Source: an uncultured Prevotellaceae bacterium
Lineage (GTDB): Bacteria > Bacteroidota > Bacteroidia > Bacteroidales > Bacteroidaceae
NCBI GenBank assembly: GCA_900316315.1
Contig: ONCK01000019.1
Coordinates: 1-50,729, forward strand
DNA length: 50,729 nucleotides
Direction of reading: 5' to 3'
This document shows positions 3,113 through 50,729 of the stretch, piece after piece. Position numbers and translations under genes: made by a program. The notes beneath the pieces are model-generated. The model was not told the DNA's origin and searched no databases. It was given only the letters and a program-made list of their open reading frames with translations. Each line of letters opens with the position of its first letter. Position 1 is the first letter of the stretch.

Positions 3113-6100
3113 TTACAAGTTGATTGTAACACCGAAATTGAAGTTGCGAGACTGAGGCAGCATGCCAGTATCTATACCCTGATAGAGTACGCTGTTGCTG
3201 CAAGATACTTCAGGATCGTTGCCATTGTACTTGGTCAAGGTAAAGAGGTTGTTGGCCTCGGCCCAGACAGTCAGGCCCTGTAACCAGGAGAGTGAAAGCG
3301 GTAACTTGTAGGTAAGGCGAACTTTCTTAAGCTTCAGATAAGAACCATCCTCTATCCAGCGATCAGAGAAGCGCTCATTGTTGACCCACTCAGAGCTTGA
3401 GGTGAGCACGGCACGAGGCATCTCGGTCACTTGTCCTTCGTAAGTCCAGCGATTGAGCACAGCCTTAGACTGATTCCAGAGATTGTTTTCGCTCTCTATC
3501 TGAGAAGCCTGATAGTTGAAAACGTCGTTGCCAAGAGAGTACTTGAATATGACATCCAATGTAAAGTTCTTGTAATTGAACTTGGTGAAAATATTACCGT
3601 AAATATCTGGATTAGGATCACCAATCTTGACCATATCAGCCTCGGATATCCAACCGTCACCATTCTGGTCGATAAAGTGTACATCACCAGCCTTGAAGTA
3701 ACGATACGGATCTCCTGTATAACCGGTCGGATAACGGAGGTATCCGAGCTTACCGGCCTGAGAGGCCTCCTTGTCTGTAGCGAAGACGCCTGCAGTCTTG
3801 AATCCGTAGAAGACACCGGCAGCCTCACCAACTGTGGTAAGAATATTGTCTGTACCATAGATAGAAGAGGTGTATCCGCGCAAGGTCTTGTAAACGGAGC
3901 TCTTATTGCCATCGGCATCCAGATTGTAAGTAGTAATCTCGGAAGAGGGCAGATCGGTAATCTCATTGTGGTAATGGCCTACACTGAAGCCCATCTGCCA
4001 CTTGAAGTCTTTGCCGTTGAGTACGATGCCACTGACGTTGACATTGACACCACTGTTCTTGAGAGCACCGTCATTGGCCCACATAGTTCCAAGTCCAGTG
4101 ACATAGTCTATGCTCTTCATCGTCAAGAGATGGGAGGTTTTTGCCCAGAAGAGGTTGACACCGAGATTGACACGGTTGTCAAAGACACTGGTCTCAATAC
4201 CTACATTGAAGCGGCGTGTTGTCTCCCACTGAATTTCGGAGTTAGCGATATTGGCAAGACGTAGCGCTGTTGCACGATTCATGAACTTAGTGTTAGCAAA
4301 GTACGTACGTGTAGCGTAGTAGTCAATATTATCATTACCTGACTCTTCGTAGCCAGCAGAAAGCTTGAGGAAGTTAACCAATGTGTTGGTCTTAAACCAA
4401 GGCTCGGAGGAAATCAGCCATGCTGCCTGGATAGAGGGGAACAAACCCCACTTTACGCCGAACAGTTTGATGCCTTCCTTGGCATTTTTACCGAAGCGGG
4501 AAGAAGACTCTGCCGTAAGTGTAGCATTGGCATAGTAGCGAGACTTGTAGTTATAAGCAGCGTTAGCAAACCAAGAGAAGTTGAGCCACTTATCATTGGC
4601 ACCGCCATAAGACAGATACTGCAAGGAGTAGCTGAGGTTAGGCATCTTATCATTGGAGTTGTTGTAGCCGCCAGCGTAACTATCAGAATAGTTGAACGAG
4701 TTGAGACGGAAACCACCTATAACATCTAGAGAATGAGCTCCCCATTTGTTGTGGTAGTTCGCATAGAGATTATTGCTAATAGAACTCTCCTCGCTAAATT
4801 GAGACTTCACAGAGCTGCTGATATTGCCAAGACCCTCGACAAACTTGGTCGGAGTACCACTAATCGGCAGGTAATACATTTCACTGGTACGGTTGAGTAC
4901 ATAGCTGAAACGATCACCTACAGTCAACGATTTGCTGATTTCCCAACGCGGATTGAAGTTGAGCATAAATGCTGTCTGATCCTGGTAGTTCTTATTGTCG
5001 CCGTCACCGTTTTGGAGTATCCAGTAAGGATTGGCAAGAGCATCTGTACCATAGTGGACACCATAGGTGAAGGGATTGTTGGCATCAGAGAATGTCTTAC
5101 CAGAGTAGACATTGCCCGAATTGAAAATCTTGTTCATCTGAGAAGCCTGGTCCCAATAGGTGACATAGCTGTACTTGCTGATCATAGGAGCAACAATCAG
5201 GCCCAAGACATTGGGAGAGGAAATGTTGGCACGGGTATAGTCACTTGCCCATCCATTGTCACGCAGATTGTAAGTAACACGAGAATAAGAGATATCAAAT
5301 GATGCAAAGACATCTCTAAACATATTAATATCCGTATTGAAGCGGATGTTTAAGCGACTAAAGTCATTCTTCTTAGCCGTTGCATCAGATTTGGTGTATC
5401 CTAGAGACAGGCCATAGAGCGCGATTTCGTCACCACCCTGTACGTTGACGCGGTAGTTTTGCGTGAAGGCCGTCCGGTACAAATCTTTCTGCCAGTCTGT
5501 ATTGTTGTGATAAAGATTGTAGAAAGTGTAGTTGGGATCCTCATTCATGAATGAAGAATTCGCGATATTGTTGAGCAACTGATTGGAAGAATTTGTGGTC
5601 TCGTAAGTACCCAAAATATTGGAAAGGTAATTGCGGAACTGCGAGCCATTCATAACATCGATTGTTGAAGGTGCCGTCTCAAAACCTCCATAAACACGCG
5701 CCTGGATACGGGTCGCACGATTACGGCCACGCTTTGTCGTGATTTCAATTACGCCATTAGCACCCTTGGCACCATATATAGATGTACCGGTATTGAGAAC
5801 CTTTACCTTGTCGATATCCTCGACATCCAGAGTGCTCAGGATATTGTTGAAAAATCCCTGATGAAGGGTTGAACGGTCGTATTGCATATCCATCACAACG
5901 CCATCAATGACTACAAGAGGCTGATTGATGGTATTGAGAGAGGTAATGCCATTGATAAACATACTGGCACCTTGACCCGGCATACCGCCACGCACTGCAG
6001 TACGGATATTTCCCTCAAAGGCATTCTCAATCTCAGTCTCAGCGGAGATAGAAGAAGGATCGACAATAGCGGCTTCCTTATTGGTAAATACTGTATTGCC

Positions 6101-39900: not shown

Positions 39901-40834
39901 CAAGTATCTTTTGGGCGGTTTCCTCGGTAAGCTCCGTCTCGCGGTCGAGTACTACCTCGTTGCGCTCGATAGAGACGACTTCGCCCGTGTCCTCATCTGC
40001 GAAATCCTCTACCCAGCTCTTCAAGACGCGTCCCGCCAGCTTGCGACGATGGATGAGGCCTTCGCCTTCACCCTCTGCCAACTCGAGTGCGCTTCTGTCT
40101 GGTCCTTTGGCAGCGGCAGCCTTGATAATCTTCTTCAGGTTGGCCTCCGTTACCTTGACCTCTTCTGCCAAGTCAAATATCTGGAGTATATCCTTATCTG
40201 TCTCAAAACCTATCGCACGCAGAAGTGTGGTTACTGGCAACTTCTTCTTGCGGTCGATGTAGGCATACATGACATTGTTGATGTCTGTCGCGAACTCTAT
40301 CCAAGAACCCTTGAATGGTATGACGCGGGCCGAGTACAACTGGGTACCGTTGGCATGTATGGATGACCCGAAGAATACACCAGGAGAGCGGTGCAACTGC
40401 GATACGACTACGCGTTCGGCACCGTTGATGACAAAGGTACCACTATTGGTCATATAGGGAATCTGACCCAAATAAACGTTGTCTATCTGCGTCGTAAAGT
40501 CCTCGTGGTCCGGATCCGTACAGTATAATTTAAGTTTCGCCTTGAGATAGACGCTATAAGTCAAGCCCTTGATAAGGCATTCCTCAATAGTGTAGCGAGG
40601 AGGCTCGATGCTATAGTCCAAAAACTCAAGCACAAAATTGTTTCGTGTGTCTGTGATAGGGAAATTTTCACTAAACACTTTGTAAAGCCCATCTTCTTTT
40701 CTCTTCTCAGGAGGGGTATCGAGCTGGAGAAAATCTCGGAAGGACTTTATTTGCACGTCCAAGAAGTCCGGATAAGGAAGCGGATTCTGGACAGATGCAA
40801 AGTTGATTCTACCATCAATTACTTTAGAAGACAT
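36947..40834 (-). CDS. rpoB: DNA-directed RNA polymerase subunit beta
   Basis: The 1295-residue beta subunit. The rifampicin-binding region (about residues 490-540) reads [20 protein letters not shown] and [18 protein letters not shown], with wild-type Asp, His and Ser at the positions usually changed in resistant mutants, so I see no rifampicin-resistance substitution there. The C-terminal catalytic half has [19 protein letters not shown] and ends [18 protein letters not shown], the clamp-contacting anchor. The gap to rplL carries an attenuator-like hairpin. The ATG at 40834 begins [18 protein letters not shown]. Confidence 0.98.
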
Positions 40835-40865
40835 TTGGATATATGTTCACTGGTTTATAAGACAC

Positions 40866-40901
40866 AAAAAGTTAAGAACCCCCTACCAGAGGATTCTTAA
40901 C
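40866..40901 (-). terminator. Attenuator-like terminator between rplL and rpoB
   Basis: Minus-strand GTTAAGAA (40901-40894) pairs with TTCTTAAC (40878-40871), with more G-C pairs possible inside, followed by TTTTT. Partial termination here would give less rpoBC than ribosomal stalk mRNA, as in other bacteria. Confidence 0.8.
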
Positions 40902-40924
40902 TATGAAATTATCAGATATAGAGA

Positions 40925-41302
40925 TTACTTAATCTCTACAGTAGCGCCTGCCTCTTCGATAGCCTTCTTGAGGGCTTCAGCGTCTTCCTTAGAAACGCCA
41001 GTCTTGACAGCCTTAGGAGCAGCGTCTACGAGGTCCTTAGCTTCCTTGAGGCCAAGACCGCAAGCTTCCTTAACGGCCTTAACGACCTTCAGCTTAGCGT
41101 CACCAACAGCTGTGAGGACTACATCAAACTCGGTCTTCTCTTCAGCAGCAGCAGCAGTAGCACCGGCTGCAGGACCAGCAACAGCAACAGCGGCTGCGGC
41201 GGGCTCAATACCATAGTCTTCTTTCAAGACATTGACCAAATCATTTACTTCTTTAACTGTCAAATTTACTAATTCTTCAGCAATAGCTTTTACGTCTGCC
41301 AT
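40925..41302 (-). CDS. rplL: 50S ribosomal protein L7/L12
   Basis: The 125-residue stalk protein that recruits translation GTPases. The N-terminal dimerisation helix ([20 protein letters not shown]) is followed by an Ala-rich hinge and the C-terminal domain with KTEFDVVLT and [18 protein letters not shown]. Length and composition are typical. It lies 34 bases after rplJ; the hairpin in front of rpoB follows. Confidence 0.98.
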
Positions 41303-41336
41303 TTTATTTCAAAATTAAATGTTTATACTTTTGTTA

Positions 41337-41852
41337 TTATTCCGGGCGTTCACCCAAAGTTTTTAAGACACCATGAATATTGTTACTGCCAGATTGGAGT
41401 GCAGAAACAACGTTCTTGATAGGAGATTGCAGGAGTGCGACGACGTCTGCGATAAGTTCTTCCTTGCTCTTGAGAGATGCAAGTTCATTCAGCTGGTCAG
41501 GACCGTAAAATCCGCCCTCGGCATAAGCCCCCTTCAAGCCTTTGACAACAAATTTGCTGTCATCCTTTATCAGTCTTGCAGGCAGGTTGGCCTTATGGGT
41601 GAAAAGTACGGATGTTGTACCTTTAAGGTAATCAAACAAAGGAGAGAAATCTGTACCACTAGCGATCATTGCCTTCTCGAGAAGGGTATTCTTGACCGTA
41701 ACCATCTTGATTTCTTTCTTAAAGCAGATGCCTCTTACGGCTGTCGTATCCTCTGCATTAAGTCCCGTAGTATCTACCAGGTAGAAGTGGGGATACTCTT
41801 TGATGAGCTGACCAAGTTTTTCTATTATTACGCCTTTATCTTCTTTCTTCAT
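41337..41852 (-). CDS. rplJ: 50S ribosomal protein L10
   Basis: A 171-residue protein anchoring L7/L12 dimers to 23S rRNA. It starts MKKEDKGVIIEKLGQLIKEY and carries DTTGLNAEDTTAVRGICF and the MVTVKNTLLEKAM stretch typical of L10. Only 8 bases separate it from rplA, so there is no room for the long L10-binding leader seen in E. coli; feedback control must act elsewhere if it exists. Confidence 0.97.
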   Translation of the reverse strand: MKKEDKGVIIEKLGQLIKEYPHFYLVDTTGLNAEDTTAVRGICFKKEIKMVTVKNTLLEKAMIASGTDFSPLFDYLKGTTSVLFTHKANLPARLIKDDSKFVVKGLKGAYAEGGFYGPDQLNELASLKSKEELIADVVALLQSPIKNVVSALQSGSNNIHGVLKTLGERPE

Positions 41853-41860
41853 GATCTAAG

Positions 41861-42565
41861 TTATTTTTCTGCGTTATCCATTGACTTGGTATCCAACTTC
41901 AAACCCTTACTCATAGTTGTGGAGATGTAGGCACTCTTCAGGTATGTACCCTTGGCAGCAGCCGGTTTCAGCTTGATGATTGTTGCAAGGAATGCGCGGG
42001 CATTGCCTGCGATCTGCTCCGGAGTAAATGAGATCTTACCGATAGAGGAGTGGATAATACCGCTCTTGTCTACTTTGAAATCTATCTTTCCTGATTTCAC
42101 CTCGCTTACAGCCTTGGCGACATCCATGGTCACCGTACCGCTCTTGGGGTTAGGCATCAGTCCGCGCGGACCGAGTACACGGCCCAAAGGACCTACTTTA
42201 CCCATGCAAGAAGGCATTGTAATGACAACATCGATGTCTGTCCATCCGCCTTTGATTTTTTCTATGTACTCGTCAAGACCAACGTAGTCAGCCCCAGCTT
42301 CTTTAGCTTCGGCTTCCTTATCGGGTGTGCAGAGACACAATACACGTACGGTCTTACCGGTACCGTTGGGGAGGGTGACTACGCCACGTACCATCTGATT
42401 AGCCTTGCGGGGATCTACGCCGAGACGTACATCCATGTCCACAGAAGCGTCAAACTTGGTGGTGGTAATCTCCTTCAGCAACTTTGAAGCCTCAGAGATA
42501 GTATAGGCCTTTCCTGTCTCAATCTTCTCTGAGGATAACTTTTGGTTTTTTGTAAGTTTACTCAT
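41861..42565 (-). CDS. rplA: 50S ribosomal protein L1
   Basis: A 234-residue protein of the L1 stalk. Marks are [30 protein letters not shown] and [20 protein letters not shown], followed by MPNPKSGTV. It sits 12 bases after rplK and just ahead of rplJ. Confidence 0.98.
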
Positions 42566-42577
42566 ACTTGTCGAAGA

Positions 42578-43021
42578 TTAAATGTTAGCGGGAAAGTCAC
42601 CTTTTACAGTGATACCCATACTTCTTGCAGTACCGGCTACAAGTTTCATTGCGCTTTCTACAGTAAAGCAGTTCAGATCCGGCAGCTTGTCTTCTGCAAT
42701 AGCCTTCACTTGATCCCAAGTTACGGAGGCGACCTTCTTGCGGTTGGGCTCGGCTGAACCACTCTTCAATTTAGCTGCTTCCTTTAGCTGTACAGCGACC
42801 GGAGATGTCTTGACGACGAAGGTGAAGCTCTTATCCGTATAGAATGTAATGATTACGGGAAGTACCTTTCCGGCCTTGCTCTGTGTGAGGGCGTTAAACT
42901 GCTTGCAGAAATCCATTATGTTAAGGCCTTTAGAGCCCAGTGCAGGACCTACGGGAGGTGAAGGATTTGCCGCACCGCCCTTAATCTGTAGTTTAATTAT
43001 ACCAGCAATTTCTTTAGCCAT
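42578..43021 (-). CDS. rplK: 50S ribosomal protein L11
   Basis: A 147-residue protein at the GTPase centre. It begins [20 protein letters not shown] with the [19 protein letters not shown] motif and ends KGDFPANI. It follows nusG by about 55 bases. Confidence 0.98.
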
Positions 43022-43076
43022 ATTATTTAATTATTTGTAGTGAATTGATTTTGATCAGGCAGGTACGTAACATTAC

Positions 43077-43625
43077 CTATTCCTTCTCTACCTGCATAAA
43101 ACCAAGGGTCAACGGAGTATTGCGTCCGAAGACCTTTACCATGACCGTCAGCTTCTTCTTTTCGTTGTTCACTTCGTCAACAACTCCTGAGAATCCGCTG
43201 AACGGACCTTCCGTCACCTTAACGGCTTCGCCCACGATGTAAGCATCCTGCATTTCACTGCTTTGCTCTACATCCTGTGCATTACCGATAAGCCTCTTGA
43301 TCTCCGCATCCTGCATTGGAGCCGGATTATCCAAGCCACCCAAAATACCTATGACATTGGGAGTATTTCTCAGTTTGAAAGCGACATCACCGACCATCAC
43401 AGCTTCTACCAGCACATAGCCTGGCAAACTATTACGCTCTTTGATTACTCGCTTTCCGTTGCGTACCTGAAAAAACTTTTCCGTCGGGATAAGTACCTGT
43501 GTCACATAGGGAGCCAAAGTCTTGTTGCTGATCTCAGCATCGAGATACTCTTTGACTTTTGCTTCCTTACCACTAATTGCACGCAGAACGTACCATCTTG
43601 GAGTTTGAGTTCCAGTCTCAGCCAT
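43077..43625 (-). CDS. nusG: Transcription termination/antitermination factor NusG
   Basis: A 182-residue factor that binds RNA polymerase and links it with Rho or the ribosome. The NGN domain starts with TPRWYVLRAISGKEAKVKEY, and the C-terminal KOW domain reads VGEAVKVTEGPFSGFSGVVD. Length is typical of the core NusG, not a specialised paralogue. It follows secE by 14 bases. Confidence 0.96.
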   Translation of the reverse strand: MAETGTQTPRWYVLRAISGKEAKVKEYLDAEISNKTLAPYVTQVLIPTEKFFQVRNGKRVIKERNSLPGYVLVEAVMVGDVAFKLRNTPNVIGILGGLDNPAPMQDAEIKRLIGNAQDVEQSSEMQDAYIVGEAVKVTEGPFSGFSGVVDEVNNEKKKLTVMVKVFGRNTPLTLGFMQVEKE

Positions 43626-43639
43626 TCCTAAAAGTACAT

Positions 43640-43828
43640 TTAATGAGGATAAATCGACGTCATGAGGAATTGAAAGACCTTATCCATCGCAAACACGATA
43701 ATTGCTATGACCACGGAAGCAATTAATACGACCACAGCACTATGTGTCAGCTCCTGACGAGAAGGCCATGTAGTCTTATGAGCCAATTCTTCGTAAGAAT
43801 CCTTGCAATACCTTAATACTTTATTCAT
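43640..43828 (-). CDS. secE: Preprotein translocase subunit SecE
   Basis: A 62-residue single-span inner-membrane protein that stabilises SecY. It begins MNKVLRYCKDSYEELAHK with the family motif TTWPSRQEL, then one hydrophobic segment (SAVVVLIASVVIAIIVFAMD). I chose the ATG at 43828: a longer frame extends to 43930 but would run through tRNA-Trp. Confidence 0.95.
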   Translation of the reverse strand: MNKVLRYCKDSYEELAHKTTWPSRQELTHSAVVVLIASVVIAIIVFAMDKVFQFLMTSIYPH

Positions 43829-43842
43829 CTTGTATATATTTG

Positions 43843-43915
43843 CACGGGAGGAGAGACTCGAACTCCCGATATCTGGTTTTGGAGACCAGCGCTCTACCAA
43901 CTGAGCTACTCCCGT
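43843..43915 (-). tRNA. tRNA-Trp (CCA anticodon)
   Basis: A 73-base cloverleaf. Acceptor arms ACGGGAG and CTCCCGT pair fully, and the anticodon loop CTCCAAA gives CCA. The T-arm has GTTCGAG. The 3' CCA is not encoded. It lies between tuf and secE, the usual place in Bacteroidota. Confidence 0.97.
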
Positions 43916-43918
43916 AAA

Positions 43919-43952
43919 TAGGAACTCCACCTTGTTGCAGATAGAGTTCCTA
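43919..43952 (-). repeat. Hairpin between tuf and tRNA-Trp
   Basis: TAGGAACTC and GAGTTCCTA form a perfect 9-pair stem with a 16-base loop. No T run follows beyond TTTA, so it may mark RNA processing rather than termination. Confidence 0.6.
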
Positions 43953-43970
43953 TATTATCTTAGATTTGTA

Positions 43971-45158
43971 TTAGTCGAGGATCTCTGTGATCTGACCGGA
44001 ACCCACGGTACGACCACCTTCACGGATGGCGAAGCGCAGACCGGTGTTGAGAGCTACAGGGTAGATGAGCTCTACATTAATCTCTACGTTATCACCAGGC
44101 ATCACCATATCTACGCCCTCGGGGAGTGTAATCTCACCGGTGCAGTCCATGGTACGAAGGTAGAACTGAGGACGGTAGTGATTACCAAATGCGGTATGAC
44201 GACCACCCTCTTCCTTCTTAAGTACATAGATGGAAGCCTTGAACTTAGAGTGAGGAGTGATGGTACCCGGATGGGTAATGACCATACCACGCTTTACTTC
44301 CTTCTTGTCGATACCGCGGAGGAGCAGACCTACATTATCACCAGCCTCTCCCTCATCGAGGATCTTACGGAACATCTCGACGCCAGTTACAACGGACTTC
44401 TTATCCTCACCGAGACCAAGGATCTGTACTTCGTCACCTACCTTTACGGTACCAGTCTCAATACGACCTGTTGCAACAGTACCACGACCTGTGATAGAGA
44501 ACACATCCTCTACAGGCATCAAGAAGGGTTTATCAATATCACGCTTAGGCTCCTGAATCCAGTTGTCGACAGCGTCCATGAGTTCCATTATCTTGTCTTC
44601 CCACTCTTTTACGCCATTGAGTGCACCAAGTGCAGAACCGCGGATGATAGGAGTATCTGCTTCGAAGTCATAAGCTTCGAGGAGCTCACGTACTTCCATT
44701 TCTACGAGTTCAAGCATCTCCTCGTCCTCGACCATATCACACTTGTTAAGGAATACGACGATACGGGGAACATTTACCTGACGAGCGAGCAGAATGTGCT
44801 CACGAGTCTGAGGCATAGGACCATCGGTTGCAGCTACAACAAGGATTGCGCCATCCATCTGAGCAGCACCGGTTACCATGTTCTTTACATAGTCAGCGTG
44901 TCCCGGGCAGTCTACGTGTGCGTAGTGACGCTTTGCTGTCTCATACTCGATATGAGCGGTATTAATGGTGATACCACGCTCCTTCTCCTCGGGGGCGTTG
45001 TCAATCTGATCGAAGGACTTTACTTCCTCGCCTGTACCCAGTCTCTCGTGGAGCACCTTGGAGATAGCGGCGGTCAGGGTTGTCTTACCATGGTCTACGT
45101 GACCGATAGTACCAATGTTTACGTGCGGTTTTGTGCGCACAAAATTTTCTTTAGCCAT
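43971..45158 (-). CDS. tuf: Translation elongation factor Tu
   Basis: A 395-residue GTPase that brings aminoacyl-tRNA to the ribosome. G-domain motifs are intact: GHVDHGKTT (residues 18-26), [23 protein letters not shown] and NKCDMVED. Domains II and III follow, ending [16 protein letters not shown]. Length is normal. The only tuf in the window lies between tRNA-Thr and tRNA-Trp. Confidence 0.98.
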
Positions 45159-45213
45159 AGCTTTCTTTTTTAATTTATACTAGATAGAATATTTTATCCG
45201 TAGTACCTCTTAG

Positions 45214-45285
<72 letters not shown>

Positions 45286-45292
45286 ATTGTTG

Positions 45293-45365
45293 AGCGGAAA
45301 ACGGGGCTCAAACCCGCGACCCCCAGCTTGGAAGGCTAGTGCTCTATCAACTGAGCTATTTCCGC
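45293..45365 (-). tRNA. tRNA-Gly (TCC anticodon)
   Basis: A 73-base cloverleaf with acceptor GCGGAAA/TTTCCGC and anticodon loop CTTCCAA giving TCC. The T-arm reads GGGTTTGAGCCCC. Confidence 0.96.
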
Positions 45366-45375
45366 GTTGTCAATG

Positions 45376-45458
45376 TGGGCAAAGATGGATTCGAACCACC
45401 GAAGGCATAAGCCAGCAGATTTACAGTCTGCCCCATTTGGCCACTCTGGTATTTGCCC
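45376..45458 (-). tRNA. tRNA-Tyr (GTA anticodon)
   Basis: An 83-base class II cloverleaf with a long variable arm (GCTGGCTTATGCC region). Acceptor is GGGCAAA/TTTGCCC, anticodon loop CTGTAAA gives GTA, and the discriminator is A. It is first of the three tRNAs. Confidence 0.96.
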
Positions 45459-45499
45459 TTGCCTCAATCTCCCGAGCCTCCGGAGGGCGTCGGCGTAAG

Positions 45500-45530
45500 A
45501 TTGCAGCCGTTCCTATCACTGGAAACGGCT
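45500..45530. repeat. Hairpin in the leader of the tRNA-tuf transcript
   Basis: TTGCAGCCGTTCC and GGAAACGGCTGC pair with one bulge. It overlaps the region between hpf and tRNA-Tyr, directly after the -7 element. No T run on the minus strand, so I do not call it the hpf terminator. Confidence 0.5.
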
Positions 45531-45531
45531 G

Positions 45532-45539
45532 CAAATTTA
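45532..45539 (-). promoter_or_regulatory. -7 promoter element of the tRNA-tuf-secE-rpoBC transcript
   Basis: TAAATTTG on the minus strand fits TAnnTTTG, 74 bases ahead of tRNA-Tyr. A T-rich TTTT lies 19 bases upstream instead of TTTG. Confidence 0.4.
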
Positions 45540-45580
45540 GGCATTATTTCTGAACTGGAAAAGACTTTCCAATTATTTTT

Positions 45581-45880
45581 TTACTTTGCGTGTCTTTTTT
45601 CTTTGTATTTTTCCAATTGACGCAGTAGGGAGTCTACGCAGAGGCTCACTCCTTCCTCAAATGTGTCACACACTTTCTCAGCAAAGAGTTCACCCTGTTT
45701 GACCAGCACCTTGATTGAAGTGTACTTATTCATAGCCACTTCCGGCTTCTCTACTTTCAGCTGTACTTGGGCCGAGATGACCTCGTCGCTAAATTTCTCT
45801 ACCTTTGACAGCTTCTTGTCGATGTACGACCGAAGCTTTTCAGTTGCATCAAAATGAACTGACTGAATCTTTACTTCCAT
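45581..45880 (-). CDS. hpf: Ribosome hibernation-promoting factor (short HPF/RaiA family)
   Basis: A 99-residue protein that binds idle 30S subunits or 100S dimers in starved cells. The fold is the beta-alpha-beta-beta-beta-alpha of HPF: MEVKIQSVHFDATEKLRSYI, then VEKFSDEVISAQVQLKVEKP, and a basic C-terminal helix LLRQLEKYKEKRHAK. It is the short form without the C-terminal dimerisation domain, so 100S formation would need a partner. It lies 12 bases after xerC. Confidence 0.93.
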   Translation of the reverse strand: MEVKIQSVHFDATEKLRSYIDKKLSKVEKFSDEVISAQVQLKVEKPEVAMNKYTSIKVLVKQGELFAEKVCDTFEEGVSLCVDSLLRQLEKYKEKRHAK

Positions 45881-45892
45881 AGTATATAGTGT

Positions 45893-46774
45893 TTAGGCCC
45901 GTGGATGGGCACATTCGTACGTTCGTCTGAGTTCCTCAAATGTCGTATGCGTATAGACCTGCGTCGATGCGAGACTGTCGTGACCGAGCAGCTCCTTGAC
46001 CGACTCAATATCGGCGCCGTGATTGAGCATCTGGGTAGCAAATGTGTGACGTAGCACATGGGGCGTACAGCCTTTCATCGTCGTGACAAGTGACAGATAG
46101 TGCTTGACCGTGTACTGCACTTCGTTCCGAGTGATGCGCTGTCCTGCTTCGTCTATGTAGAAAGCCGGTTCGTCCCCTCTTGCGACCCGGCTTCTAGCGT
46201 CAAGATAGGCGTGTGCCGTCGTTTCCAATTCATCACCGAAAGGAATCTGTCGCTCCTTATTTCGTTTGCCAATCACGCGTAGCGTCCTGGCCCCGAAGTC
46301 CATGTCACCCACATTCATCCCGACCAATTCCGCCAGACGAATACCGGTCGAATAAAGCATAAGCAGTATCATGTAGTCGCGGCGGCCTCTAAAGTCGTCA
46401 CCAAACTCGACGCGCTCAAAGAGCTTATCCAGCTCACTCTCGCGCAAAAACTTGGGCAGAGGTTTTGCCTTCTTGGGTCCAGCGACCATATAGGTTGGAT
46501 CTTGGGCGACATAGTCGTATGACAGGAGGTATCTGAAAAACGAACGAAGCGCGCTCAACCGTGCATTGACAGTTGTAGCTGCGCTTCCATCTCTCATCAG
46601 GCTGACTATCCACTCACGGATATCGCCCGCATTGACCTTGGACCAATCTATGTCCGCATCCTGCTGACCCATATAGGACTCAAAGGAGTCCAGACTCGCG
46701 CGATAGGCGCTGACAGTCAGCGGGGAATAATGACGCTCGCTCCTCAGATACTCCAGAAATGACTCTTTGTACAT
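45893..46774 (-). CDS. xerC: Tyrosine recombinase XerC-like
   Basis: A 293-residue site-specific recombinase of the type that resolves chromosome dimers at dif. The N-terminal SAM-like core-binding domain (residues 1-95) is followed by the catalytic domain. All catalytic residues are present: Arg146 (TGIRLAEL), Lys170 (VIGKRNKE), His239 and Arg242 (HVLRHTFA), His265 (LLGHDSL) and the nucleophile Tyr274 (TQVYTH). It sits between rpsU and hpf, a conserved chromosomal place, so it is a housekeeping Xer and not an integrase of a mobile element. A weak promoter (TACGTTCG, 46804 to 46797, with TTG 20 bases upstream) may add transcription. Confidence 0.92.
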   Translation of the reverse strand: MYKESFLEYLRSERHYSPLTVSAYRASLDSFESYMGQQDADIDWSKVNAGDIREWIVSLMRDGSAATTVNARLSALRSFFRYLLSYDYVAQDPTYMVAGPKKAKPLPKFLRESELDKLFERVEFGDDFRGRRDYMILLMLYSTGIRLAELVGMNVGDMDFGARTLRVIGKRNKERQIPFGDELETTAHAYLDARSRVARGDEPAFYIDEAGQRITRNEVQYTVKHYLSLVTTMKGCTPHVLRHTFATQMLNHGADIESVKELLGHDSLASTQVYTHTTFEELRRTYECAHPRA

Positions 46775-46849
46775 ACGTCGTCGGACATTTGCGCTACGAA
46801 CGTACGAAAAAGAATTGACATTTCCAAGTATTGAGTGCTAAAAATCGTA

Positions 46850-47041
46850 TTATTCCTCCTCGCGGTGCAAAGCCTGTATGTATATAGCGTGCTCCTTGGC
46901 GAGACGCTTCTTTACTGAAGGCTTCTCATACTGCTGGCGACTACGGAGCTCCTTGACCACACCGGTCTTGTCGTATTTTCTCTTAAACTTCTTTAAAGCT
47001 CTCTCGATGTTCTCGCCATCTTTTACTGGTACAATAATCAT
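46850..47041 (-). CDS. rpsU: 30S ribosomal protein S21
   Basis: A 63-residue basic protein of the small subunit near the anti-Shine-Dalgarno site. It begins MIIVPVKDGENIERALKKFK and ends AKEHAIYIQALHREEE, the S21 pattern of Bacteroidota. It is the first gene of the supercluster, with its own strong promoter. Confidence 0.95.
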   Translation of the reverse strand: MIIVPVKDGENIERALKKFKRKYDKTGVVKELRSRQQYEKPSVKKRLAKEHAIYIQALHREEE

Positions 47042-47083
47042 ATATTCTTTAGTTTATCTTGATTTTCTAGTCATTAGCGGGCG

Positions 47084-47115
47084 CAAAGTTACACAATCTT
47101 TTAATTACAGACAAA
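47084..47115 (-). promoter_or_regulatory. Strong Bacteroidetes-type promoter of rpsU
   Basis: On the minus strand TTTG (47115 to 47112), 20 bases, TAACTTTG (47091 to 47084). Both elements match consensus. The leader to the ATG at 47041 is about 35 bases. Confidence 0.75.
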
Positions 47116-47394
47116 TTTTTTCTGACACTTTTTTGCCAACCAATGACTTACCCGTTTGGCGCCTACCCCAACTCTCCTCATCGACTCATGTGGGCGGCCG
47201 TTTACCGGACTTGACTTTGTATAGTATCGCTGGCAGAGTACGCTCACTTCTCTGATCTCTGTCAAAAAGCGACACAGCAGGCCAAGCTCCGCTCCATCCC
47301 CAGCAGTCAACTGATATTTCTGATACAATGACACGGTCGAGGCAAGCCGGATTGGCGAGTTGAAGAGACACTATCCGATGTTTTTGATACAAGG

Positions 47395-47420
47395 TCGGAC
47401 TTAGTTACAACTAAGTCCGA
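47395..47420. repeat. Perfect 26-base dyad
   Basis: TCGGACTTAGTT, two bases, AACTAAGTCCGA. It shares the CGGACTT/AAGTCCG core with the sigma-gene terminator at 27266. No T run follows on either strand. Confidence 0.85.
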
Positions 47421-47580
47421 TGTAGTTCAAACTAGAAGCGACCTTGTTATTGTCAGAAAATCAGTAAGTAGCAAGCGTGTGTGATTTTGTTCTGATTTTC
47501 TTTCTTTCGCGCCCTCACAACATACATACCATCTCTGACGCTTCGCGGTGCAAAGTCGAAAAGGCCAGATGAACTGTTGA

Positions 47581-47700
47581 CAAAGTCGGACGGAGTACTG
47601 AGGCGGAGGAAAAAGGCATTCCGACAGTACCAATACAATTTCGCCCATATTTAGCGCTCATTTGAAATCCAGTATACGGCTTTATCTGGGTCCGACTTTG
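47581..47700. repeat. Long-spaced 11-base inverted repeat
   Basis: CAAAGTCGGAC (47581-47591) and GTCCGACTTTG (47690-47700) are exact complements 98 bases apart, after the end of the DUF262 gene. Confidence 0.7.
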
Positions 47701-47735
47701 CTTTTCCTTTCCCTGATCCGTATGTATGCCGGAAG

Positions 47736-48896
47736 CTATCTGTTGCCCTTGGCTCTGTTATGGGTCTTGCAGAGCATCTGGCAGTTGCTGATGTCGGTGG
47801 CACCGCCCTTACTCCATGCCGTTACATGGTCTGCATCCATTTCGGTAAGTTTGTAGATTCGGTTCTTATTTGGCCCGTCAGAGATTGCGCACAGCGGACA
47901 GTTGGAGGTTCCTTTTTTCTTTGCCTCTTGTGTCTGCCGTTCATATACGGTCTTGATGGTGTGCTTGTCAAAGAGCCGGATATTGAGCAGCGTTGTGTCA
48001 GAACTATCGCCAAGCAGGTATTCAAAGATGCCTTTCTTGTTGGTTACAAACTCATCAACCATCAGTCTGGCCACATCAGCATCCATCTTGTCAGGATTGT
48101 AGGGCGTGTTGTGGAATCGTTCGTAGAGGTCGCCCCATTCCAAGCCGCACTGTTCTGAATACAAAGTAGGAAACACACTGCTCACCCAATCTATTACGCT
48201 GTCGAAGTAGTTGGTTACGGGACGTATGTCTGTGTCTTTTCTGTGCTCTGCCATGTAGCCGTCTATATTGCCACGACTCACCCAGTCCAATGCCGTTTCC
48301 AAGACTTCCTGACGTTTGGGGTCTCCCTTGATGTAGGATCCCCATTTCTGCTGCAATGGATTGAGGGAGTTTGAATATAGTGCTTTCAGTGCCGTGATAA
48401 AAGGCCCAGAATAAATGGCATTGCGCATTTCCTGATCGTTGAGACGCACGCCACCTATGTTGATGATCTGGAACCAGTCCTTGATTTCTTTCTCAGTACC
48501 CTGACAGATGTAAATGGTAAGTAGTGTCTCGGAGAACTTCTTCTTCAAGTCCTCATCGAGGGAGTTATAGTTCTGTTCCCTTCCGTCATAGACAATGGGT
48601 AGTTTGTTGGTGAAGAAACGTCCTAAAGAGGTGATGCGCTGCTGTCCGTCAAGAACCTCGTACATTCCATCGTCACGGAGCGTGAAATATATCAGTCCGA
48701 TGGGAAATCCCCGGAGTACAGACTGTACTACGGAAACGTCTTTCTTTCCATCGTTGTAGATGTAGTTGCGCTGGTATTCGGGCTGGATGATGAGCTTGCC
48801 GTTCCAGCCATACAAGCCTTTGCCCTCACTCTCATTGTAAACGAATCCCTTGCAGAGGTCGGCTATAGTAATGTTGGTGCGTAGAGTAGTATTCAT
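47736..48896 (-). CDS. DUF262 protein with C-terminal HNH endonuclease domain
   Basis: A 386-residue protein. Residues about 10-200 form a DUF262 (GmrS/ParB-Srx-like) domain: [11 protein letters not shown] (37-47) and [13 protein letters not shown] (79-91), with the Arg and DGQQR motif that in the family mark the nucleotide-binding and hydrolysing site. The C-terminal 55 residues are an HNH nuclease: zinc pair C333-P-L-C336, catalytic D356-H357, N371, then Cys376 and H379-N380. DUF262 joined to an HNH-fold nuclease is the layout of modification-dependent or phosphorothioate-linked restriction proteins (GmrSD, SspE, BrxU use DUF262 with DUF1524). Here the nuclease part is a plain HNH. The ATG overlaps the methyltransferase stop by four bases (48893-48896), so the two are translationally coupled. 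Confidence 0.9.
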
Positions 48897-50032
48897 AGTT
48901 GTTGTTTGCGGATTAAAATGCGTGCATATGGTTTCACAGGAATGCCATTTTCCATGTAATAGAGTTGTCCGTCTCTTAAGCTTGGATTGAGTTTCTTTAA
49001 TTCCCTGTCGAATGGCTTTAATCCAAGTTCCTTACCAGAATCGCCTTGCGTCTGGCCTATAATTTCAAACTGTTCTGGGCAGTACTTATCGAGGAATGAA
49101 ATAGGCACACCCATTTTCCCATCGTAGTCTGATGGTATAGCATCAGTATAAGGCACCTCAATGGCATCGTAGTTGTCGTAGTGCTGGTATTCCTTCCGTC
49201 CTCGCAAGTCCTTGTGGCTGCTGAACTTGATGTTGTCGGCCATAGTCATGAGTGATAGAGGTTCATGTCTGCGACCATGTTCAATATTAGTAAACCACCT
49301 AACACCTTTTACTCTAATAAAATGGTTCCCATTTTCATCAATACGCCAACCTGCTGCATTTAGGGGGTATTCCTTTGGTACTCCAAATTCTCTATCCCCG
49401 GAACTTATAGATGGCCCTAACCACACCTTGTTGTCTTTGATGAGTGGAAACACCTCCTTGTAGGTTATTGCATTCATATTGCCGATGATAGAGAATTGTA
49501 TTCCTCCTTCCATAAGCCAAGCTATGAATTCCCGAAACAGAGAGAATGGAGGGTTTGTTATAACTATATCGGCATCGTTACGCAATTGTGTAACTTCCCT
49601 GCTGCGAAAATCGCCGTCTCCCTCTAAATAATCCCATTGCAGGTCGTCAAAGTCTATGCGGTCGTCTCCGTTGATGTCTCGGTCGAGAATGAATATTTTC
49701 CCTCTTGTCTGCCATTTTGAAGGGTCAAATTTCGGGTCATATTCCTCTTCGGGAAACAGTGATGGCTCTATGCCGTACTTGGCCTTTTTGGCATCAAGGG
49801 CATAACTCGTGCTGATGAGCCGTTTGATGCCAAACAATTGGAAGTTCAGTGCAAAGAACTTGGTAAAGTTACTCCACTTAGGATCGTCGCAAGGCAGAAG
49901 GACGGTCTTGTCTCGGAAGATATCAGGATTATAATCCAGATAAGCCTGTATCTCTTTGTTGATGTCAGTAAGCTGGGTGTAAAACTCGTCGTTCTTGGCC
50001 ATCTTGGCCCCGCCCAGGTTTTGATTGGACAT
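48893..50032 (-). CDS. EcoRI-family adenine-specific DNA methyltransferase
   Basis: A 379-residue predicted N6-adenine methyltransferase. It begins [20 protein letters not shown], the stretch typical of this family's start; an internal ATG at residue 11 is possible, but the longer form keeps the family pattern. The SAM-site segment is [16 protein letters not shown] (45-60) and the catalytic motif is NPPF (160-163) in [16 protein letters not shown]. No target-recognition subunit or EcoRI-like endonuclease lies beside it; the partner is the coupled DUF262-HNH gene. Codons look a little more A/T-rich than in the ribosomal cluster, which would fit transfer. The structured RNA at 50087-50239 ends 55 bases upstream on the same strand. 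Confidence 0.9.
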
Positions 50033-50086
50033 GTAGCAATAGTTTTAAGCGCATGTAACTATCGTTAGGCAGGCATCTCAGGACAC

Positions 50087-50239
50087 AAAAAAGAGGCACG
50101 GACGTCGATATTATCCGTGCTCTGAGGCCCTGAGATGCCCGCCAACGCCGATAAATCCACGCCCATGCTATCGCTTGGGCGCTTACAACTTAATCTGGCG
50201 TTGACATTGTGAAATTTCTCAGGTTTCAGAGCACAACGA
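50087..50239 (-). ncRNA. ssrS: Structured RNA resembling 6S RNA (6S-Flavo type), with intrinsic terminator
   Basis: On the minus strand the predicted RNA starts near 50239 and ends in a T run at 50092-50087. Its ends close by a long helix: GTGCTCTGA (50234-50226) with TCAGAGCAC (50125-50117), a small internal loop, then CCTGAGA (50223-50217) with TCTCAGG (50135-50129), 16 pairs in all. Inside lie a large internal loop, the helix CAACGCC/GGCGTTG (50203-50197 with 50149-50143), and a terminal hairpin CGCCCA/TGGGCG (50181-50176 with 50165-50160). The rod with a central bubble, and the 3' strand GGCGGGCATCTCAGG, recall 6S RNA, which binds RNA polymerase like an open promoter. A terminator stem GCACGGA/TCCGTGC (50120-50114 with 50102-50096) follows. 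An alternative is a leader/attenuator of the methyltransferase gene. Confidence 0.6.
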
Positions 50240-50245
50240 ACAGTA

Positions 50246-50280
50246 GCAAACGCTATATTAATATTCCATTAAGACAGAAA
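50246..50280 (-). promoter_or_regulatory. Possible promoter of the structured RNA
   Basis: TTTCTG (50280-50275), 19 bases, TAGCGTTTGC (50255-50246): near consensus, with one extra base in the -7 element. It would start the RNA close to its closing helix. Confidence 0.4.
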
Positions 50281-50620
50281 CACCGTCCCGCCGGACGGCT
50301 ATCCGATGGACAAAAATAGACAAAAAAATATAAAACCACAGCTGTATTACCTTATTATTTTGGGCTCAGCAGACATTATTCCTCCACTATCTCAAAAATC
50401 CACCTCGTATCCGACGGTCCACCTGCCATACCCTCTCCTTCTGAATCAGTCCTAAAGCTGCGTAGCAATTACAACACGCATCGCCTCATCTACAAAAAAA
50501 CGAGAATTAAGCAGCACAAAAATAGGAGATAAAGACAAAGAGAGATGGGAAACGTGGATAGCAGAATAGAAGCTGGGACGAGAGGCGAAGGCCATAAGAG
50601 AGGCAACGGGGATAAAAAAG

Positions 50621-50662
50621 CAAAAAAAGGAGCGTCCCGGTCATTGCTGACCAGGACGCCCT
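50621..50662 (-). terminator. Terminator of the rRNA operon
   Basis: Minus strand: GGCGTCCTGGTCA and TGACCGGGACGCT pair around a 4-base loop, then CCTTTTTTTG. It lies about 10 bases after the 5S 3' end. Confidence 0.92.
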
Positions 50663-50672
50663 TCTCTTAAAA

Positions 50673-50729
50673 ACGGCGGCGACCTACTCTCCCGCATTGT
50701 GGTGCAGTACCATCGGCGTGCCGGGGCTT
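50673..50729 (-). rRNA. rrf: 5S ribosomal RNA, 3' part (cut by window edge)
   Basis: The last 57 bases are the reverse complement of a 5S 3' half: the segments read as CCGATGGTACTGCACCACAA and GGGAGAGTAGGTCGCCGCC match the conserved 5S loop E and helix V/I regions. The 5' part, and by inference 23S and 16S, lie beyond the right edge. Confidence 0.93.

What the first reader, a model, noticed from the sequence alone, without database searches (positions are those of the whole stretch)
47736..50032. Two-gene EcoRI-family methyltransferase plus DUF262-HNH module: candidate undescribed restriction/defence system
An adenine methyltransferase with an intact NPPF motif overlaps by four bases a protein that joins a DUF262 sensor/NTPase-like domain (DGQQR) to an HNH nuclease with all its ligands. 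Known DUF262 restriction proteins (GmrSD, SspE, BrxU) carry DUF1524 nuclease parts and act on modified DNA or beside phosphorothioation genes; a coupled EcoRI-type methyltransferase partner with plain HNH is different. Either the methyltransferase protects host sites from the nuclease, or the nuclease reads the methyl mark. Function is inferred; the domains are seen.
Basis: partly seen in the sequence, partly recalled or inferred. Interest (0 to 1): 0.72.

Follow-up and report, generated by a model that had tools for sequence, protein, structure and literature searches.

The report
Restriction pair with swappable targeting enzyme
Two overlapping bacterial genes make a DNA-marking enzyme and a DNA-cutting enzyme; across relatives the marker's two likely target-reading patches are exchanged freely while the cutter stays almost unchanged, which suggests that the cutter gets its aim from its partner.

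Summary
On the minus strand, a PF13651 (EcoRI-family) adenine methyltransferase (MT, 48893-50032) overlaps by 4 bp a DUF262(PF03235)-HNH nuclease (RE, 47736-48896). The pair is real, widespread and mobile: the MT lies directly upstream in 68 of 80 named relatives. It is not unlisted: PADLOC scores both proteins nearly full length as Type II RE and Type II MT. What is new is how it evolves. In 164 distinct pairs two MT segments, V1 and V2, are swapped as blocks, independently of each other and of the nuclease (Spearman RE-V1 0.00, RE-V2 0.06; RE-MT core 0.76). Of 46 comparisons with nucleases at least 90% identical, 35 have V1 or V2 under 40% identical. In MTs of the same family beside true R.EcoRI, V1 and V2 are more conserved than the core (15 of 15). 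DpnII systems show no such swaps at RE identity of 90% or more (0/8 and 0/9). I infer that V1/V2 set the target and that the nuclease has no fixed target of its own; most likely it works through the MT, with a mark-reading (SspE-like) nuclease as the main rival. No biochemistry was possible.

The parts
48893..50032 (-). EcoRI-family adenine methyltransferase (MT), 379 aa, first gene of the pair
   Evidence: ORF; PF13651 430.8 bits; PADLOC MTase_II 304.1 bits; AF2 model pLDDT 86.7, residues 11-258 like RNA and DNA adenine methyltransferases incl. M.TaqI
49544..49555 (-). NPPF catalytic motif (MT residues 160-163)
   Evidence: sequence; [TS]NPP[FY]S in 102 of 102 paired MTs
49298..49414 (-). V1, first swappable segment of the MT (residues 207-245), inferred target-recognition cassette
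   Evidence: blockwise swaps with RE conserved; locked when the partner is R.EcoRI
48929..49054 (-). V2, second swappable segment of the MT (residues 327-368), inferred target-recognition cassette
   Evidence: clean V2-only swap L273/L276
47736..48896 (-). DUF262-HNH nuclease (RE), 386 aa, second gene of the pair
   Evidence: ORF; PF03235 and PF01844; PADLOC REase_II 281.2 bits; AF2 model pLDDT 89, pTM 0.64
48411..48791 (-). DUF262 / GmrSD_N domain of the RE (residues 36-162 in Pfam; residues 4-133 resemble BrxU and SspE)
48636..48650 (-). DGQQR nucleotide-pocket motif (RE residues 83-87)
   Evidence: present in 102 of 102 paired REs
47739..47900 (-). HNH nuclease domain with zinc ligands (RE residues 333-386)
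48893..48896 (-). 4-bp overlap of the MT stop and the RE start
   Evidence: same overlap in 21 of 68 adjacent relatives

Best explanation
The pair is a two-gene restriction-modification system in which the methyltransferase carries the target specificity for both activities. The MT has two separate target-reading segments (V1 and V2) that are exchanged between lineages as cassettes, so that each MT marks its own short sequence with N6-methyladenine. The DUF262-HNH protein has no fixed sequence specificity; it most likely binds its partner MT (or MT-bound DNA), and an unmethylated site recognised by the MT triggers the DGQQR nucleotide pocket, which releases the HNH nuclease. A new V1 or V2 then changes marking and cutting together, as in Type III or Type I systems. 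Shown here: gene pair, domains, conservation, co-occurrence, swaps, controls. Inferred: that V1/V2 are DNA-recognition segments, that the RE lacks its own specificity, physical complex, NTP use, order of events.
For: 164 distinct pairs: Spearman RE-MT core 0.76, RE-V1 0.00, RE-V2 0.06, V1-V2 -0.04. RE at least 90% identical: 35 of 46 comparisons have V1 or V2 under 40% identical; RE at least 80%: 348 of 387. A clean case is L273/L276: DNA identity 91.7% in RE, 95.3% in MT core 1, 38% in V2. RE dN/dS 0.01-0.06 in the 9 of 13 chosen comparisons where dS was finite; saturated in 4. V1 types need 53 changes on the RE tree (minimum 9, shuffles 57-67), while MT-core clusters need 8 (shuffles 24 or more). 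Matched control: MTs of the same family beside R.EcoRI keep V1 and V2 more conserved than the core in 15 of 15 comparisons; in the DUF262 set V1 exceeds core in 367 of 4288 and V2 in 94 of 4288 at the same RE identity of 60-92. Second control: DpnII systems have 0/8 and 0/9 MT windows under 30% identity at RE >=90, against 21/27 here. No RE column tracks V1 as MT core columns do (max z 6.0 against 17.7). In L062, L063 and L081 an (AG)n repeat lies in V2 and different frames after it encode different V2-like ends, beside an intact RE.
Against: No biochemistry and no methylome. The RE could change target through a few residues: 5 of 329 RE columns exceed the permutation 95% limit for V1. For V2 the contrast is weak: 24 of 323 RE columns exceed it (max z 7.3, MT core 10.6), though V2 types follow phylogeny in part (V2 29 changes against 36-42 shuffled). 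In the DpnII control too, MT windows fall below 30% once REs are less alike (8/21 and 11/27 at RE 70-80). The swaps alone do not separate an MT-guided nuclease from one that reads methyl-adenine in any context. No complex was modelled, and pTM 0.64 leaves the RE domain arrangement open. Many loci are metagenome bins.
Confidence: 0.55

Rival explanations
1. SspE-like mark reader: the MT marks host DNA on its own and the DUF262 domain reads N6-methyladenine in any sequence context; reading the mark triggers nucleotide hydrolysis and licenses the HNH domain against unmarked DNA. The RE would then be blind to sequence and would not need the MT protein itself.
For: Fits the swap results. SspE, a DUF262 protein with the closest fold after BrxU, relies on the host mark for activity (abstract of PMC9646914). 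An RE without a visible MT may exist: L123 has no MT in the 6 kb upstream, with only 0.1 kb held downstream.
Against: SspE is tied to one motif, CPSCA (abstract), so a context-free reader would be a further departure. MT core and RE travel together (rho 0.76), which a pure mark reader would not need, although gene linkage alone could give this.
Confidence: 0.2
2. Classical Type II system: RE and MT each recognise the same sequence on their own, and the RE keeps up with MT changes through few substitutions.
For: PADLOC files both proteins as Type II; gene order and size fit; some RE columns associate weakly with V1 and V2 type.
Against: RE 94-98% identical with V1 or V2 under 30%, for example L005/L097 and L273/L276; RE dN/dS 0.01-0.06 where it could be computed; both controls behave differently.
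Confidence: 0.07
3. Type IV-like nuclease: the RE attacks modified phage DNA as GmrSD and BrxU do, and the MT is a linked epigenetic gene with another role.
Against: Near-constant pairing (68 of 80 directly upstream, 9 more within about 1.8 kb) and frequent gene overlap have no reason in this model.
Confidence: 0.08
4. V1 and V2 are not target-recognition segments but hypervariable surface regions that escape phage inhibitors; the site recognised stays constant.
For: Surface diversification under phage pressure is a known pattern (general knowledge); the PDB sequence search gave no relative of the MT (best E 0.35).
Against: V1 and V2 are more conserved than the core when the partner is R.EcoRI (15 of 15); V1 and V2 fall into discrete homology groups (20 V1 and 44 V2 types in 102 pairs), as recognition domains do; recalled, not from a call: Tyr204 of M.EcoRI cross-links to DNA, and it lies in V1 if the initiator Met is not counted.
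Confidence: 0.06

Closest known systems
EcoRI restriction-modification (M.EcoRI + R.EcoRI)
   Same: Same methyltransferase family (PF13651); the V1 group of M.EcoRI recurs in the DUF262 set (67-69% identity to L066, L072, L099) and its V2 group too (82% to L010).
   Different: R.EcoRI is an unrelated nuclease that reads GAATTC itself; gene order R then M; V1/V2 locked rather than swapped.
GmrSD / BrxU / SspE (DUF262 restriction proteins)
   Same: N-terminal DUF262 fold with DGQQR.
   Different: They carry DUF1524 (passages); here a short PF01844 HNH of Cas9/McrA type and a regular EcoRI-family MT partner.
Type III restriction-modification (Mod/Res)
   Same: MT gene carries exchangeable recognition segments (TRD movement in Type III: passages of PMC3983042); that the nuclease stays conserved and that repeats make Mod phase-variable is general knowledge (titles).
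   Different: No helicase domain found in the RE; DUF262-HNH instead; EcoRI-family MT.
BREX PglX
   Same: A methyltransferase that also serves as the specificity factor for defence (abstract of PMC11341690).
   Different: BREX is a multi-gene system; here two small genes.
PADLOC REase_II PDLC03418 / MTase_II PDLC03297
   Same: Nearly full-length model matches for both proteins: the sequence class is already catalogued.
   Different: The model names say nothing about swappable specificity or dependence of the RE on the MT.

Membership tests
Classical Type II restriction-modification | Adjacent RE and MT genes | tested here: met
Classical Type II restriction-modification | RE and MT each recognise the same sequence on their own | tested here: not met
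   Indirect test only: MT V1/V2 are swapped beside conserved REs, unlike R.EcoRI and DpnII pairs. Not a biochemical test.
M.EcoRI family (PF13651) | PF13651 match over the curated cut-off | tested here: met
   430.8 bits, cut-off 26.4
M.EcoRI family (PF13651) | GAATTC specificity | tested here: inconclusive
   V1 of the window is only 33% identical to that of M.EcoRI; no methylome
GmrSD/BrxU/SspE | DUF262 domain with DGQQR | tested here: met
GmrSD/BrxU/SspE | DUF1524 nuclease domain | tested here: not met
   Pfam finds PF01844 HNH and no PF07510 up to E = 1
GmrSD/BrxU/SspE | Dependence on modified cytosine or phosphorothioate | not testable with these tools
   needs enzyme assays
Type III restriction-modification | Specificity carried by the MT and shared with the nuclease | tested here: inconclusive
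   evolutionary pattern fits; sharing not shown directly
Type III restriction-modification | Helicase-type Res subunit | tested here: not met
   no helicase domain in the RE up to E = 1
BREX | brxC, pglZ and other core genes nearby | not tested
   not searched by model; ORFs of window 40000-50729 were listed and the flanks looked like ribosomal and tuf genes, judged by eye, and tRNAs

The most novel reading that the evidence does not exclude
A widespread, so far unrecognised architecture of restriction-modification: an EcoRI-type methyltransferase with two independently exchangeable recognition cassettes acts as the guide of a sequence-blind, nucleotide-gated DUF262-HNH nuclease, so that target choice can be re-programmed by recombination, and in some genomes by dinucleotide slippage that switches the reading frame between alternative V2 ends, without any change in the nuclease.
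Probability: 0.45. Interest if true: 0.82.

Novelty: new variant of a known kind. Interest (0 to 1): 0.7.

Why it matters
EcoRI's methyltransferase is the textbook case of an enzyme that reads its site independently of its nuclease. If its relatives are guides for a DUF262-HNH nuclease, a common 'Type II' gene pair of gut bacteria (102 of 399 genomes of the window's family), also found on plasmids and in some phages, is misfiled; R-M specificity there can be changed by moving two short cassettes; and a small, reprogrammable, methyltransferase-guided nuclease becomes available for study. It also gives the DUF262 family a sequence-specific partner and makes the question of what DUF262 senses directly testable.

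Tried and rejected
(1) 'Undescribed system' as stated: rejected in part, both proteins match PADLOC Type II models. (2) Solved relatives by sequence: only E 0.26-0.35 matches for RE and MT, taken as chance. (3) Eco47II control (11 loci; 10 used): too few and too divergent, best RE identity 76%; not informative at 80% or more, and below that its MTs also have windows under 30% (e.g. 10 of 13 at RE 60-70). (4) First DpnII run mixed the two methyltransferases of DpnII loci and showed false 'swaps'; redone with each MT group apart. (5) Simple-repeat phase variation in the window itself: none; strict V2 motif in the window: a single copy, in the MT. (6) A noncoding RNA upstream of the MT: only matches below the gathering score, at 50594-50721, taken as chance. 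(7) 'NsnA' (a PADLOC name without description): of 436 papers 20 were listed, none on this subject by title or shown abstract. (8) Residue-level association of RE with V1/V2 types gave weak hits, told under evidence against.

Rows dropped before counts: the 9 loci with a distant MT and the 3 without one are not in the pair set; of the 68 adjacent loci, L062 and L079 (MT shorter than 300 aa) were left out; 12 pairs came from the loci, while the reversed-order locus L007, the two-MT locus L051, and cut or split loci were not used. L181, L189, L191 (MT incomplete or too far) and 4 duplicates were left out, as were 13 of 75 loci (MT cut by my chosen stretch, split, or separated by a gene; L290 and L318 show no MT in the stretch). 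R.EcoRI control: 6 pairs used of 19 plasmid records with a match; most others are the same or near-identical sequences by identity band, one fragment (H127) and one weak partial match (H129) were not fetched; L243 was fetched and left out because no M.EcoRI-like MT was found in it. For one search the best 80 of 420 confirmed relatives were kept by the tool.

Full report
OBSERVATION. The window is contig C30 (bases 1-50729) of a 2.45-Mb assembly, 99% complete. Two minus-strand ORFs lie where the finding says: MT 48893-50032 (379 aa) and RE 47736-48896 (386 aa), overlapping by 4 bp. Pfam gives PF13651 EcoRI_methylase at 430.8 bits for the MT, and PF03235 (GmrSD_N, DUF262) at 69.3 bits plus PF01844 (HNH) at 35.3 bits for the RE. 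PADLOC already holds models that match each protein over nearly its full length, named Type II restriction enzyme (281 bits) and Type II methyltransferase (304 bits). NCBIfam gives only a weak IscB match for the RE's HNH end (16.1 bits, cut-off 175).

THE PAIR IS REAL AND MOBILE. In 61 genomes (the window's own included) an RE-like match at E <= 0.001, distant DUF262 proteins included, is found in 21, and PF13651 in 16, 15 over its cut-off. In the window's family 102 of 399 genomes hold the RE at E <= 1e-60. A scan of one genome per species kept 80 named loci (420 relatives confirmed): 42 Bacteroidota, 12 Bacillota, 6 Pseudomonadota, 12 in other phyla including candidate phyla, 8 unassigned by name. 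The MT is directly upstream on the same strand in 68 of 80, 0.5-1.8 kb upstream in 9, and not found in 3, two of which start near a contig end (L068, L105) and one of which (L123) has none in the 6 kb upstream. An RE-like match is found in 277 plasmid records (43 with 80% or more of the query in one place) and 55 phage records (4 with 80% or more); in Flavobacterium phage laban6-1 both genes are annotated side by side. In the window the pair lies upstream of a ribosomal-protein-S21-like gene at 46850-47041 (named by me from its sequence). 18 of 19 genomes of the genus, the window's included, match this stretch; tblastn finds no MT or RE in the loci of the 17 other genomes, of which 0.46-1.6 kb upstream of that gene is held. 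So the site is variable.

THE KEY RESULT. Comparing RE and MT across pairs, I noticed REs 93-98% identical beside MTs only 52-84% identical, with the differences mostly in two blocks: V1 (window residues 207-245) and V2 (327-368). In 102 distinct pairs V1 falls into 20 homology groups and V2 into 44, in 78 combinations, and 11 V1 types occur with more than one V2 type. Extended to 164 distinct pairs, Spearman correlations of pairwise identity are RE-MT core 0.76, RE-V1 0.00, RE-V2 0.06, V1-V2 -0.04. With RE at least 90% identical, 35 of 46 comparisons have V1 or V2 below 40% identity; at 80% or more, 348 of 387. Comparisons are not independent, since loci are shared. Swaps of V1 alone, V2 alone and both occur. 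The cleanest case is L273/L276: DNA identity 91.7% in RE, 95.3% in the first MT core part, 86.3% in V1, 90.3% in the middle, 38.1% in V2. The RE is under strong purifying selection: dN/dS 0.01-0.06 in the 9 of 13 chosen comparisons with finite RE dS; in the other four dS was saturated. On the RE tree (quick method) V1 types need 53 changes (minimum 9; 200 shuffles 57-67) and V2 types 29 (minimum 10; shuffles 36-42), while MT-core clusters need 8 (shuffle minimum 24). So V1 is nearly, V2 largely, unlinked from the RE lineage.

CONTROLS. (a) Same MT family, other nuclease: six plasmid pairs of M.EcoRI-like MT with R.EcoRI (E. coli, two Klebsiella, Leuconostoc, Staphylococcus, Rhodococcus; the Staphylococcus MT is unannotated and was found). 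In 15 of 15 comparisons V1 (62-95%) and V2 (76-100%) are more conserved than the MT core (54-84%), with R.EcoRI at 60-92%. In the DUF262 set at the same RE identity, V1 exceeds core in 367 of 4288 and V2 in 94 of 4288. When the nuclease reads the site itself, V1 and V2 are frozen; beside DUF262-HNH they are free. The V1 and V2 groups of M.EcoRI recur separately in the DUF262 set, e.g. V1 in L066/L072/L099 and V2 in L010. (b) Classical Type II in the same bacterial family: DpnII loci (60 of 399 genomes; 30 loci fetched; 26 used in each of two MT groups). At RE >=90% no comparison has an MT 35-residue window below 30% (0 of 8, 0 of 9); at 80-90%, 2 of 24 and 3 of 21; at 70-80%, 8 of 21 and 11 of 27. 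In the DUF262 set of 102 pairs the figures are 21 of 27, 91 of 105 and 363 of 368. All DpnII systems presumably share GATC (recalled), so this control shows only that the measure is not noisy at high RE identity.

DOES THE RE TRACK THE CASSETTES? By mutual information with permutations, MT core columns next to V1 follow V1 type with z up to 17.7 (residues 186, 205). The best RE column reaches 6.0 (permutation 95% limit 4.5; 5 of 329 columns above it), with mean z (1.41) no higher than in the MT core (1.49). For V2 the contrast is weaker: the best RE column reaches 7.3 and the best MT core column 10.6, and 24 of 323 RE columns pass, with raised mean z in both (2.37 and 2.15), which I read as shared ancestry since V2 types follow phylogeny in part. 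I cannot exclude a small RE contribution.

SLIPPAGE. In 3 of 77 loci scanned (L062 Saccharibacteria bin, L063 Gastranaerophilales bin, L081 Porphyromonas bin) an (AG)n run of 16-40 bases lies inside V2. Past the run, at least two frames encode different V2-like ends with a Y-x-R-[IV]-x-[IV]-R type terminus (one of the three frames of L081 has S for R), and L062 carries three V2 starts in tandem. This looks like a frame switch between specificities rather than on/off. None of 101 further loci has a dinucleotide run of six or more units, and the window has none. Assembly error in such runs cannot be excluded.

MECHANISM. In a classical Type II system a methyltransferase that changes target beside a nuclease that does not would leave host sites unprotected; [quoted passage not shown] Free V1/V2 exchange therefore implies that the DUF262-HNH protein has no fixed target. 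Two designs give this. One, preferred at 0.55, is an MT-guided nuclease. The other, 0.2, is a mark reader like SspE, which relies on host phosphorothioation and uses GTP hydrolysis to switch on nicking (abstract of PMC9646914). BREX PglX is a precedent for a methyltransferase as specificity factor (abstract of PMC11341690). That V1 touches DNA has outside support only from memory: the photo-cross-link of M.EcoRI Tyr204; in L234 the tyrosine at 205, counting Met, lies in V1 (position).

LITERATURE. Searches for DUF262 with HNH and methyltransferase (10 papers listed), DUF262 with restriction or EcoRI methyl (40 of 66 listed), PF13651 and related names and DUF262 with target recognition domain listed no paper whose title or shown start of abstract describes this pair or cassette exchange in it. 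Passages shown of PMC4619093, PMC8713573, PMC10952713, PMC12707154, PMC8437040 and PMC7785942 do not either; the first lists Type I R-M domains as the commonest defence neighbours of GmrSD. Subscription papers, REBASE and preprints were not searched.

VERDICT. I rate it a new variant of a known kind, with interest 0.7.

Noticed in passing
L062:5569-5594, L063:5755-5770, L081:1674-1713: (AG)n runs inside MT segment V2, with alternative V2-like ends in different frames after the run: a possible frame switch between target specificities.
   Followed up: partly
L088:4778-4842: A pentanucleotide run, 13 copies of AACGC, just upstream of the MT start at 4901; possibly phase-variable expression.
   Followed up: no
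L098, L113/L114, L124, L139, L251, L258, L259, L274, L282, L284 between MT and RE: Extra genes lodged between MT and RE. Of those tested by Pfam: ORF6N (L098), BRO-N (L251, L274), MUG113 at its cut-off (L113; I recall it as GIY-YIG-like), YhcG-type nuclease plus Fic (L124), DUF2806 (L139), none for L086. The joint between the two genes seems to be an insertion spot.
   Followed up: partly
L092, L236, L051/L056: Two EcoRI-family MT genes (one of those in L092 cut by the contig end) beside one DUF262-HNH gene, with different V1 and/or V2.
   Followed up: partly
L007/L055: Reversed order in one locus: RE first, MT second.
   Followed up: no
L123, L290: DUF262-HNH gene with no EcoRI-family MT seen in the held upstream stretch (6 kb in L123; 1.7 kb in L290); about 0.1 kb is held downstream.
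   Followed up: partly
plasmid hits H94-H106 (Lactococcus) and H107-H110 (Lactiplantibacillus): Short matches without annotation to MT residues 18-81 or 269-338 on lactic-acid-bacteria plasmids, which look like remnants of the MT gene.
   Followed up: no
window 50068-50143 and 47389-47447: Inverted repeats in the noncoding stretches before and after the pair; no Rfam family at gathering score there.
   Followed up: no
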